This document shows positions 20,367 through 21,271 of a stretch of 29,595 nt of DNA, piece after piece. Location of the stretch: the NCBI GenBank assembly GCA_026986255.1, contig JALSOX010000024.1, forward strand, positions 1-29,595, given 5' to 3'. The stretch's first letter is position 1. Each line of letters starts with the position of its first letter. The notes beneath the pieces are model-generated. The model was not told the DNA's origin. It did not search any database and saw nothing but the letters and a program-made list of their open reading frames with translations. The position numbers and the translations under genes are program-made. The DNA comes from Desulfurococcales archaeon (GTDB lineage: Archaea; Thermoproteota; Thermoprotei_A; Sulfolobales; NBVN01).

Positions 20367-20416
20367 AGTGGAGCCGCCGGCGGGATTTGAACCCGCGACC
20401 ACCGGCTTACGAGGCC
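20367..20416 (-). repeat. Partial tRNA-Thr copy (att-like direct repeat, left)
   Basis: These 50 bp are identical, in the same orientation, to 21194-21243 inside tRNA-Thr. They comprise the encoded CCA, acceptor 3' strand, T-arm, variable loop and the anticodon arm through CGT, ending in the 5' side of the anticodon stem. The D-arm and 5' acceptor strand are missing, so this is not a tRNA gene. An att site left by tRNA-targeted integration is the natural reading. Confidence 0.85.
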
Positions 20417-20434
20417 CGAGATATAAATACTAAT

Positions 20435-20464
20435 GTTTTCAGCTACCGGTGGAAAAGCTGAAAC
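20435..20464. other. Inverted repeat inside the tRNA-bounded island
   Basis: GTTTTCAGCT and AGCTGAAAC form a 9-10 bp near-perfect stem around an 11-nt loop, just inside the left repeat and upstream of hicB. It could be an operator, a recombination-related site or an RNA hairpin. Confidence 0.4.
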
Positions 20465-20581
20465 GTTCATGCAGGATGCGCTATTAGCGGAGATGTTCAC
20501 CGATGCCAGCCGAAACGTCCACGGGCTACTAAGATTATTATGCCCTGGAAGCAGTGATAAGTTGTAGAGGGTGTCCCCAAG

Positions 20582-20818
20582 TTGCGTGTAAGGGCCATTA
20601 TTTGGCGAGAGGAGGACATGTATGTAGCTAGAGAGGTTGCCACCGGAGTTACTAGTCAAGGTAAAAGCGTCGAGGAGGCGCTTGAGAATCTCCTGGAGGC
20701 ACTCGAACTATACCTAGAGGAAGCTCCGGAAGCGCTTGAGAGGCTAGAACAGCTTGATCAAGGCATTGTGGGTGTACTAGAGGTTGAAGCGAAGGCTCCC
20801 AAGGCTGTCAGGGCGTGA
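20582..20818 (+). CDS. hicB: HicB-like antitoxin
   Basis: 78-residue partial-RNase-H-like HicB fold: IIWREEDMYVAREVATGVTS, then QGKSVEEALENLLEALELYLEE, the family signature (GVxSQGxTxEEALxNLxEAxELYLE). It lacks an extra DNA-binding domain. The start is TTG 20582, with GAGGGTG 8 nt upstream. It overlaps hicA by 35 bp, antitoxin gene first. HicB proteins neutralise HicA by covering its active site. The pair is the only recognisable cargo between the two tRNA-Thr repeats. Confidence 0.85.
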   Translation: MRVRAIIWREEDMYVAREVATGVTSQGKSVEEALENLLEALELYLEEAPEALERLEQLDQGIVGVLEVEAKAPKAVRA

Positions 20819-21029
20819 GATCGTAGAGCTACTTGTCAAGAAATTCGGGTTTACTATAAAGAGACAGCGCGGGAGCCACGTAGTCCTGGTTAAGCATGTT
20901 GAGGGCAGGAAGATTGTAACAGTCGTACCGCTCCACTCGGAGCTAAAGCCCGGCACACTTCTAGGAGTGCTCGAGCTAGCAGGAATAACAAGAGAAGAGT
21001 TCTTAAGAGCCCATGAAAAGGACTGCTAG
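20784..21029 (+). CDS. hicA: HicA-like mRNA interferase toxin
   Basis: 81 residues of the dsRBD-like HicA fold: LSGREIVELLVKKFGFTIKR followed by QRGSHVVLVK with the catalytic histidine (H32), then VVPLHSELKPGTLLGVLELAGITREEFL, a complete and typical C-terminus. HicA toxins cleave mRNA during translation arrest. The start is TTG 20784 inside the end of hicB, directly after an AGAGG; the LSGREIV helix needs this region. No internal damage is visible, so the toxin should be active if expressed. Confidence 0.88.
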   Translation: MKRRLPRLSGREIVELLVKKFGFTIKRQRGSHVVLVKHVEGRKIVTVVPLHSELKPGTLLGVLELAGITREEFLRAHEKDC

Positions 21030-21044
21030 TCGAGCTATAGTAGA

Positions 21045-21087
21045 GAAAGCGCCAGACTCCTGGATCCCCTGTGCAAGCCCCGCTTTC
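21045..21087. other. Inverted repeat downstream of hicA
   Basis: GAAAGCG (21045-21051) and CGCTTTC (21081-21087) are complementary around a 29-nt loop. A further GCCAG/CTGGC pair lies at 21095-21109. The interval 21030-21193 holds no gene I can support; a structured RNA or terminator is possible. Confidence 0.3.
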
Positions 21088-21193
21088 CCTGAGTGCCAGA
21101 GCGCCTGGCTAACCTACTGTGAAAGTGCTCCAGATAGCGGGAGAGCTGAAAGGGAGCACGATTAGACGTTTATACCAAGATCTATATAGCGGG

Positions 21194-21243
21194 AGTGGAG
21201 CCGCCGGCGGGATTTGAACCCGCGACCACCGGCTTACGAGGCC
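21194..21243 (-). repeat. att-like direct repeat (right), inside tRNA-Thr
   Basis: Exact 50-bp match to 20367-20416, offset by 827 bp; identity stops at both ends (T/G before, C/G after). It covers the 3' part of the intact tRNA, as expected when a tyrosine-recombinase element restores the tRNA on integration. Confidence 0.85.
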
Positions 21244-21271
21244 GGCGCTCTACCCGCTGAGCTACGGCGGC
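21196..21271 (-). tRNA. tRNA-Thr (anticodon CGT)
   Basis: GCCGCCG (from 21271) pairs with CGGCGGC, followed by T73 and an encoded CCA (21198-21196). The D-arm, the anticodon stem CCGGC/GCCGG with loop CTCGTAA (anticodon at 21238-21236), and the T-arm GCGGG-TTCAAAT-CCCGC are all standard. No intron. Its 3' part (21194-21243) is duplicated exactly at 20367-20416. Confidence 0.96.

What the first reader, a model, noticed from the sequence alone, without database searches (positions are those of the whole stretch)
20367..21271. Miniature tRNA-Thr-bounded island carrying only hicBA
A 50-bp sequence from the 3' part of tRNA-Thr(CGT), from CCA through the anticodon arm, is repeated exactly and in the same direction 827 bp away. 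The space between holds an intact, overlapping hicBA pair, two inverted repeats and no recombinase. The repeats are what a tyrosine recombinase leaves at a tRNA gene, so this looks like either the shrunken remnant of an element kept by its toxin-antitoxin pair, or a non-autonomous cassette moved in trans. The perfect identity of the repeats suggests recent origin or ongoing recombination.
Basis: partly seen in the sequence, partly recalled or inferred. Interest (0 to 1): 0.8.

Follow-up and report, generated by a model that had tools for sequence, protein, structure and literature searches.

The report
tRNA-anchored mobile toxin-antitoxin cassette
A 0.8-kb hicBA toxin-antitoxin pair sits between a threonine tRNA gene and a copy of that gene's 3' half because it appears to belong to a family of tiny, integrase-less cassettes that plug into tRNA genes of heat-loving archaea and sometimes line up in arrays like integron cassettes.

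Summary
In detail: an exact 50-bp 3'-half copy of tRNA-Thr(CGT) lies 827 bp from the intact gene, with hicBA between and no recombinase. Four close relatives have an empty site. It does not look like a shrunken relic. The same hicBA unit (0.71-0.79 kb, alignable end to end) sits likewise at tRNA-Thr in six other, distant hosts. They share an attachment unit at the distal end: a 7-bp dyad, TATTTATA, then the tRNA 3' half. A model of that unit matches 41 of 229 genomes of the class. There it ends cassettes with other cargoes (VapBC types, UPF0175/PIN, TumE) at tRNA-Thr and tRNA-Arg, often in tandem arrays of about 1-kb steps. 46 of 49 bounded cassettes carry toxin-antitoxin genes, against 20 of 245 control segments. 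No Phage_integrase match in the 41 hosts lies in a mapped cassette; in 23 of 41 the only match is a strong one, apparently XerA. Best reading: non-autonomous, integron-like toxin-antitoxin cassettes inserted at the tRNA anticodon loop by a tyrosine recombinase acting in trans. Which recombinase is unknown, and recombination itself is inferred from anatomy and empty sites, not shown.

The parts
21196..21271 (-). intact tRNA-Thr(CGT) gene, the attachment target (attL end)
   Evidence: ARAGORN and Rfam; same gene, single at the orthologous place, 100% in L001, L002 and G004, 98.75% in L003
21194..21243 (-). 50-bp core inside and just past the tRNA (3' half)
   Evidence: exact repeat of 20367-20416
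20367..20416 (-). 50-bp partial tRNA-Thr copy, distal attachment core (attR)
   Evidence: same start point in other islands
20422..20429 (-). TATTTATA box next to the core, conserved in the family
   Evidence: alignments A1, A3; position read
20437..20463 (-). dyad of the attachment arm (TTTCAGCT ... AGCTGAAA, arms 20437-20444 and 20456-20463)
   Evidence: conserved and covarying across 28 arms
20400..20475 (-). arm-plus-core attachment unit as matched by model R2
   Evidence: 67.5 bits, E 1e-13 (the window is one of the 28 sequences the model was built from)
20582..20818 (+). hicB-like antitoxin gene (78 aa, DUF7387)
   Evidence: pN/pS 0.11-0.21 against six homologues
20784..21029 (+). hicA toxin gene (81 aa), 35-bp overlap with hicB
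   Evidence: pN/pS 0.15-0.28 against six homologues
20417..21193 (.). the inserted unit (777 bp) between the two cores
   Evidence: absent from four relatives; homologous over its length to six other cassettes

Best explanation
The island is one member of a family of minimal, integrase-less integrative cassettes. Each unit is one (sometimes more) toxin-antitoxin operon plus a distal attachment unit: a dyad, TATTTATA, then the 3' half of a tRNA-Thr or tRNA-Arg gene starting in the anticodon stem. A circular unit recombines with the anticodon-loop region of the resident tRNA through a tyrosine recombinase supplied in trans. This rebuilds the tRNA with the incoming 3' half and pushes the old 3' half to the far end. 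Repeated insertion at one tRNA builds tandem arrays, with the tRNA playing the part of an integron's attI. Toxin-antitoxin cargo would favour keeping the unit, by post-segregational killing or defence. Shown: anatomy, empty sites, recurrence, modularity, horizontal spread, coding constraint. Inferred: circular intermediate, tyrosine recombinase in trans, upkeep by addiction. Not known: which enzyme.
For: Empty orthologous site in four relatives. Same hicBA unit at tRNA-Thr in six other hosts, 709-717 bp in five and 789 in one, and a vapBC unit of 1106-1115 bp in four. Arm shared across different cargoes, with a dyad 90.3% paired against at most 48.2% when slid. Arm model in 41 of 229 class genomes, in arrays such as the G195 sites 990 and 995 bp apart. 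TA genes in 46 of 49 bounded cassettes against 20 of 245 controls; the sites were found by their arms, not their cargo. HicA 78-84% and HicB 81-88% to the window in the six hosts, whose Mrp-type ATPase is only 45-51%, against 91-95% in the four empty-site relatives: horizontal spread. The window uses tRNA-Thr(CGT), the six others tRNA-Thr(TGT): separate insertion.
Against: No excised circle, reads or recombination assay. No recombinase identified; 5 of 41 hosts show no PF00589 match at all (mostly drafts). Viral contigs gave 0 exact hits with three patterns. The expected age gradient (copy next to the tRNA most like it) holds in only 7 of 10 arrays. Two of five covariation measures do not clear the shuffles (60 of 500 and 37 of 500 reach them). 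R2 E-values are rough (short calibration) and no reversed control was run for R2, so some of the weaker of the 41 may be false. Three of 49 bounded cassettes lack a recognised TA gene.
Confidence: 0.8

Rival explanations
1. Remnant of a larger integrated virus or plasmid, shrunk by deletion to its toxin-antitoxin pair.
For: tRNA-anchored remnants of larger elements are common in archaea (PMC8371274, one section and passages; PMC3718332, passages).
Against: Same compact size and end-to-end homology in seven hicBA and four vapBC cassettes; same arm with unrelated cargoes; none of the PF00589 matches of the 41 hosts lies in a mapped cassette, the nearest on the same contig being about 9.4 kb off (G198). 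Other virus genes were not searched for.
Confidence: 0.07
2. Which enzyme, option 1 (a case within the best explanation): the cassettes are moved by the host's own XerA, as IMEX elements use XerCD, the tRNA core standing in for dif.
For: In 23 of 41 cassette-bearing genomes a strong Phage_integrase match of XerA size is the only match, and 32 of 41 have one; 14 of those 32 were compared and form one family. G097, a genome of 1.6 Mb with a 1,595,994-base contig, has two sites and one match. P. abyssi dif (PMC2958812 Methods, passage) shares GGCCTT with the tRNA-Thr(TGT) core and GGCCT with the window's.
Against: By eye the arm is no good dif half site; a dif-like pattern gave 19 hits in 13 of 24 genomes, no clear excess over the reversed control, so host dif sites are unknown; 5 of 41 hosts show no match. 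No labelled XerA was run, so the name is inferred.
Confidence: 0.2
3. Which enzyme, option 2 (a case within the best explanation): a virus- or plasmid-borne tyrosine integrase (SSV or pNOB8 type) moves the cassettes in trans as satellites.
For: The SSV1 attP oligo in PMC2958812 (passage) has the same CTCCGGAGCCGGAGGTCCC core as cassettes at tRNA-Arg(CCG) such as L195; that SSV1 uses this tRNA is recalled. Integrases of about 410-470 aa sit directly after tRNA-Val, tRNA-Gly or tRNA-Thr(GGT) in some hosts, and the window has a fragment related to them at 1300-1845.
Against: Next to those integrases lie GCATATC or TATACGC repeats, not the cassette dyad (by eye); no viral contig held the exact patterns.
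Confidence: 0.5
4. A transcribed tRNA half (split tRNA gene), not an attachment copy.
For: Relatives of these archaea have split tRNAs (recalled); a TATA-like box precedes the half.
Against: An intact tRNA-Thr of the same anticodon is adjacent; distal copies are decayed in many islands. A matching lone 5' half was not searched for.
Confidence: 0.02
5. Assembly artefact from a repeated tRNA.
For: Draft contigs can break or join at tRNA repeats.
Against: The window keeps the ancestral neighbours on both sides (pyruvate kinase and RlmL-like gene), and the structure recurs in many assemblies, including million-base contigs of G055 and G097.
Confidence: 0.02

Closest known systems
Integrons and integrase-less attC clusters (CALIN), including archaeal integrons (PMC9668308 and PMC11389934, passages seen)
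   Same: small cassettes, each with its own recombination site at one end, tandem arrays, integrase often absent and acting in trans
   Different: the site is a tRNA 3' half plus dyad and TATTTATA rather than attC; entry point is a tRNA gene; cargo nearly all toxin-antitoxin; no IntI seen
tRNA-anchored archaeal integrative elements (SSV, pNOB8, pT26-2 type; review PMC8371274, one section and passages seen)
   Same: insertion at tRNA, gene restored by the incoming part, direct repeats, tandem insertion known
   Different: those encode or once encoded an integrase and are far larger; these units are mostly 0.7-1.3 kb with no integrase match
Tycheposons (PMC10872708 and PMC11389934, passages seen; original paper not held)
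   Same: tRNA-bordered, cargo-carrying, linked to tyrosine recombinases
   Different: given as 4-200 kb, bacterial, with xerD-type recombinase and other cargo
IMEX elements that use host XerCD (recalled)
   Same: no integrase of their own
   Different: use dif; use of XerA here is untested
MITEs (recalled)
   Same: tiny, non-autonomous
   Different: transposase ends and scattered targets; here one kind of tRNA site and operon cargo

Membership tests
tRNA-targeting integrative element | direct repeat of tRNA 3' part bounding the insert, tRNA left intact | tested here: met
tRNA-targeting integrative element | empty site in relatives | tested here: met
   four relatives with both flanks readable
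tRNA-targeting integrative element | element encodes its integrase | tested here: not met
   none in the window's insert; no PF00589 match of the 41 hosts falls in a mapped cassette
tRNA-targeting integrative element | excision to a circle | not testable with these tools
   no reads or strain
Integron / CALIN | IntI integrase | tested here: inconclusive
   PF00589 matches lie away from the arrays and are XerA-size or other families; no IntI-specific model was run; CALINs lack it anyway
Integron / CALIN | attC-type folded site | tested here: inconclusive
   Rfam at gathering score finds only tRNAs in the window; no attC model was run on the arms
Integron / CALIN | tandem cassettes, one site per cassette | tested here: met
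   2-4 sites in e.g. L089, L191, L192, L196, L203; the window itself has one
HicBA toxin-antitoxin | HicA domain with overlapping partner gene | tested here: met
   PF07927 E 6.5e-15, 35-bp overlap; PDB sequence match 1whz
HicBA toxin-antitoxin | HicB antitoxin fold | tested here: inconclusive
   DUF7387 by Pfam; model pLDDT 71.5, top PDB fold match is HicB but E 0.048
IMEX (host Xer use) | site resembles host dif and is recombined by Xer | tested here: inconclusive
   host dif not found by pattern

The most novel reading that the evidence does not exclude
Hyperthermophilic archaea possess an integron-like capture system without integrons: a chromosomal tRNA-Thr or tRNA-Arg gene is the entry site, cassettes are single toxin-antitoxin operons tipped with a tRNA 3' half and a specificity dyad that diversifies by compensatory change (GTTTCAG, GTTGCAT, TGTCCCAG, TTTCCAG classes), and a resident chromosomal recombinase (XerA, or an orphan tRNA-linked integrase) moves them, so that arrays of toxin-antitoxin modules are assembled and reshuffled between species.
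Probability: 0.35. Interest if true: 0.92.

Novelty: new variant of a known kind. Interest (0 to 1): 0.8.

Why it matters
It would explain how tiny toxin-antitoxin pairs travel alone and pile up in archaeal chromosomes. It gives a defined attachment unit (dyad, TATTTATA, tRNA 3' half) that makes a question testable: which recombinase acts on it? It would be a second, tRNA-based route to integron-like gene arrays, and the partial tRNAs it leaves are a source of false tRNA calls.

Tried and rejected
Shrunken relic: rejected on constant size and whole-length homology. Split tRNA and assembly artefact: see rivals. Arm as the coding start of an SSV-type integrase split by attP: a frame reads from the tRNA part into the arm but soon stops in the window and islands and joins no integrase, so dropped. 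XerA/dif: pattern no clear excess over the reversed control in 24 genomes; left open. Integrases beside tRNA-Val, tRNA-Gly and tRNA-Thr(GGT): different repeats by eye; left open. Viral or plasmid origin: 0 exact hits in viral contigs with three patterns; HicA tblastn gave 9 plasmid records and 1 phage record, all under 60% identity. The 877-aa ORF as an outer cassette: no third tRNA copy at its far end; only 25-30% partial matches, in 4 of 11 genomes; unresolved. Newest-next-to-tRNA gradient: 7 of 10 arrays, not convincing. Common descent at one place: few flanking genes are shared between hosts, though some are.

Limits of counts: profiles were grown from the cassettes' own ORFs; most seeds are recognised by Pfam, but VapB79 has no Pfam support and VapB85 and VapC149 were not tested. 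Controls come from the same loci. Cassette bounds are algorithmic (nearest upstream tRNA or site); 17 of 66 sites had no upstream bound under 4 kb and were left out of the 49. Sites that were not fetched were not typed. XerA naming is by size, score and, for 14 of 32, mutual similarity. overlap in genomes, and both used stricter filters.

Full report
What is there. The window comes from a Desulfurococcales-type archaeon: its closest matches are Desulfurococcales MAGs, pyruvate kinase 91% in L001; no whole genome is held for it. tRNA-Thr(CGT) lies at 21196-21271, minus strand. Fifty bases of its 3' half, from the encoded CCA into the anticodon stem, are repeated exactly at 20367-20416. The 777 bp between hold hicB-like 20582-20818 and hicA 20784-21029. 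The pair is under purifying selection: pN/pS against six homologues is 0.15-0.28 for HicA and 0.11-0.21 for HicB.

Empty site. One search gave five loci with pyruvate kinase at 81% or more. In L001, L002 and L003 the same tRNA-Thr(CGT) stands alone, about 55-80 bp from the RlmL-like gene that follows it, in synteny with the window. L004 begins at pyruvate kinase, but its genome G004 has the tRNA and the RlmL-like gene 58 bp apart on another contig (L047). L005 is cut inside pyruvate kinase. So 4 of 5 could be read and all four are empty. Against them the window also has an extra 877-aa beta-propeller ORF (17651-20284) beyond the repeat. It has no third tRNA copy at its far end and only 25-30% partial matches in 4 of 11 genomes; I cannot say whether it is an older cassette.

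A family, not an accident. A search for the tRNA in six relatives showed a second island in G002: at tRNA-Thr(TGT), a 51-bp exact repeat starting at the same base and enclosing 1.9 kb with a PIN (VapC-type) gene and UPF0175 pieces. The sequence next to the distal core was alike. A pattern made from the two hit 7 of 147 relatives, with 0 for the reversed control. A model of nine such arms (R1) hit 20 of 297 genomes at E 1e-4. A model of 28 arms with the dyad paired (R2) hit 41 of 229 genomes of the class at E 1e-5 and 11 of 398 drawn across the phylum (ten of the eleven are among the 41), so the family looks largely class-bound. E-values of both models are rough and R2 had no reversed control.

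The attachment unit. The arms read: dyad (GTTTCAG, about 15 bp, CTGAAAC), a few bases, TATTTATA or TATTTGTA, TCTC, then the tRNA 3' half from the anticodon stem. Over 28 arms the dyad is 90.3% paired, against at most 48.2% with the partner slid; paired cells and covariation score exceed all 500 shuffles, cells with double change all but 1, but double-change pairs (60 of 500) and pair types (37 of 500) do not clear them (shuffles ignore relatedness, and the structure came from these sequences). Dyad class goes with target: of 15 sites typed as tRNA-Thr 12 have GTTTCA and none GTTGCA; of 29 typed as tRNA-Arg 15 have GTTGCA, 4 GTTTCA, 5 other dyads, 5 none or unclear; 22 sites were not typed. That suggests a part in recombination rather than in the cargo, which is an inference.

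The cassettes. hicBA units: window 781 bp, L140 789 bp, five others 709-717 bp as measured; vapBC units 1106-1115 bp in four hosts. Both types align over their whole length, non-coding parts included. Other cargoes are VapC114/VapB79, UPF0175 with a DUF3368/PIN protein, AF2212-like with PIN, and TumE. Over 44 loci I mapped 66 sites (E up to 0.001); 49 have an upstream bound under 4 kb, median length 1111 bp. Of these 46 carry a toxin or antitoxin gene (32 both, as scored), against 20 of 245 same-length control segments. The sites were found by their arms, not by their cargo. Arrays: L191 and L192 have four sites each, L196 and L203 three, L206 three at wider spacing, nine others two; in G195 successive sites are 990 and 995 bp apart. 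Partial copies decay outwards in 7 of 10 arrays with a tRNA, not convincing.

Spread between species. HicA and HicB of the six other hosts are 78-84% and 81-88% identical to the window's, while a Mrp-type ATPase is only 45-51% identical to the same hosts and 91-95% to the four relatives that lack the cassette. The window's target is tRNA-Thr(CGT), theirs tRNA-Thr(TGT). Few flanking genes are shared between hosts. This points to horizontal movement with independent insertion.

How it likely works. tRNA anticodon loop and stem match the layout of a tyrosine-recombinase core site, and archaeal integrases often use the tRNA 3' part (PMC8371274, section on tRNA sites read). The simplest mechanism is a circular cassette whose arm-plus-core recombines at the anticodon loop of the resident tRNA, with the enzyme supplied in trans. 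The window's partial copy is still identical to the tRNA, as in several other islands, while L132 shows a decayed core and an altered HicA end. The recombinase is not known. Of the 41 cassette-bearing genomes, 32 have a strong PF00589 match of XerA size, in 23 it is the only match, 4 have weak matches only and 5 have none; 14 of the 32 were compared and form one family. None of the matches lies inside a mapped cassette; the nearest on the same contig is about 9.4 kb away, in G198. Larger integrases stand beside other tRNAs in some hosts, and the window itself has an N-terminal fragment related to them at 1300-1845 after a tRNA at 2011-2110, but with different repeats.

Against known systems. 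It works like an integrase-less integron array (CALIN) with a tRNA in place of attI, and like a satellite of a tRNA-targeting integrase. It fails the integrase-encoding test of classical integrative elements, and no IntI or attC was shown, so I file it as a new variant, not as a member. Searches of the paper library for such cassettes gave tRNA-linked remnants and vapBC genes in Sulfolobus (PMC3718332, passages), dark-matter islands (PMC4158269, passages), partial tRNAs (PMC9897764, passages) and archaeal integrons (PMC9668308, passages), but in the listings and passages seen no tRNA-bounded toxin-antitoxin cassette family. Most subscription papers are not held, so prior description cannot be excluded.

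Noticed in passing
window 1300-1845 (minus) and tRNA 2011-2110 (minus): N-terminal fragment (181 aa) of a large archaeal tyrosine recombinase, 40-42% identical to 458-467-aa integrases in G140 and G204, just downstream of a tRNA (Rfam; read by me as intron-bearing Pro GGG), with GGCATATC repeats between: a second tRNA-anchored element or remnant in this window.
   Followed up: partly
window 17651-20284: 877-aa beta-propeller (PQQ-like) ORF present here but absent from the orthologous gap in four relatives; no attachment copy on its outer side.
   Followed up: partly
L161, L162, L163, L164, L230, L233: Integrases of about 407-467 aa sit directly after tRNA-Val, tRNA-Thr(GGT) or tRNA-Gly(CCC), preceded by short repeats (GCATATC or TATACGC); open frames, up to 77% identical between two hosts. 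Possible orphan integrase platform.
   Followed up: partly
window 20582-20818: Pfam DUF7387 (PF24113), of unknown function, is here the partner of HicA; its predicted fold weakly resembles HicB, suggesting a HicB-type antitoxin family.
   Followed up: partly
L133:8416-8787, L128 second cassette, L130:3544-3915: TumE-type toxin ORFs in the same kind of cassette (Pfam for L133, profile hit for L128, by eye only for L130).
   Followed up: partly
L132 (G185): hicA of this cassette has a divergent, shortened end and its distal tRNA copy is decayed (40 of 49), as an ageing copy would be.
   Followed up: no
several arms: TATTTATA sits like an archaeal TATA box reading into the tRNA half and the next cassette; possible promoter.
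   Followed up: no
window 5133-5239 and 2011-2110: ARAGORN missed two tRNA genes that Rfam finds, perhaps because of introns.
   Followed up: no
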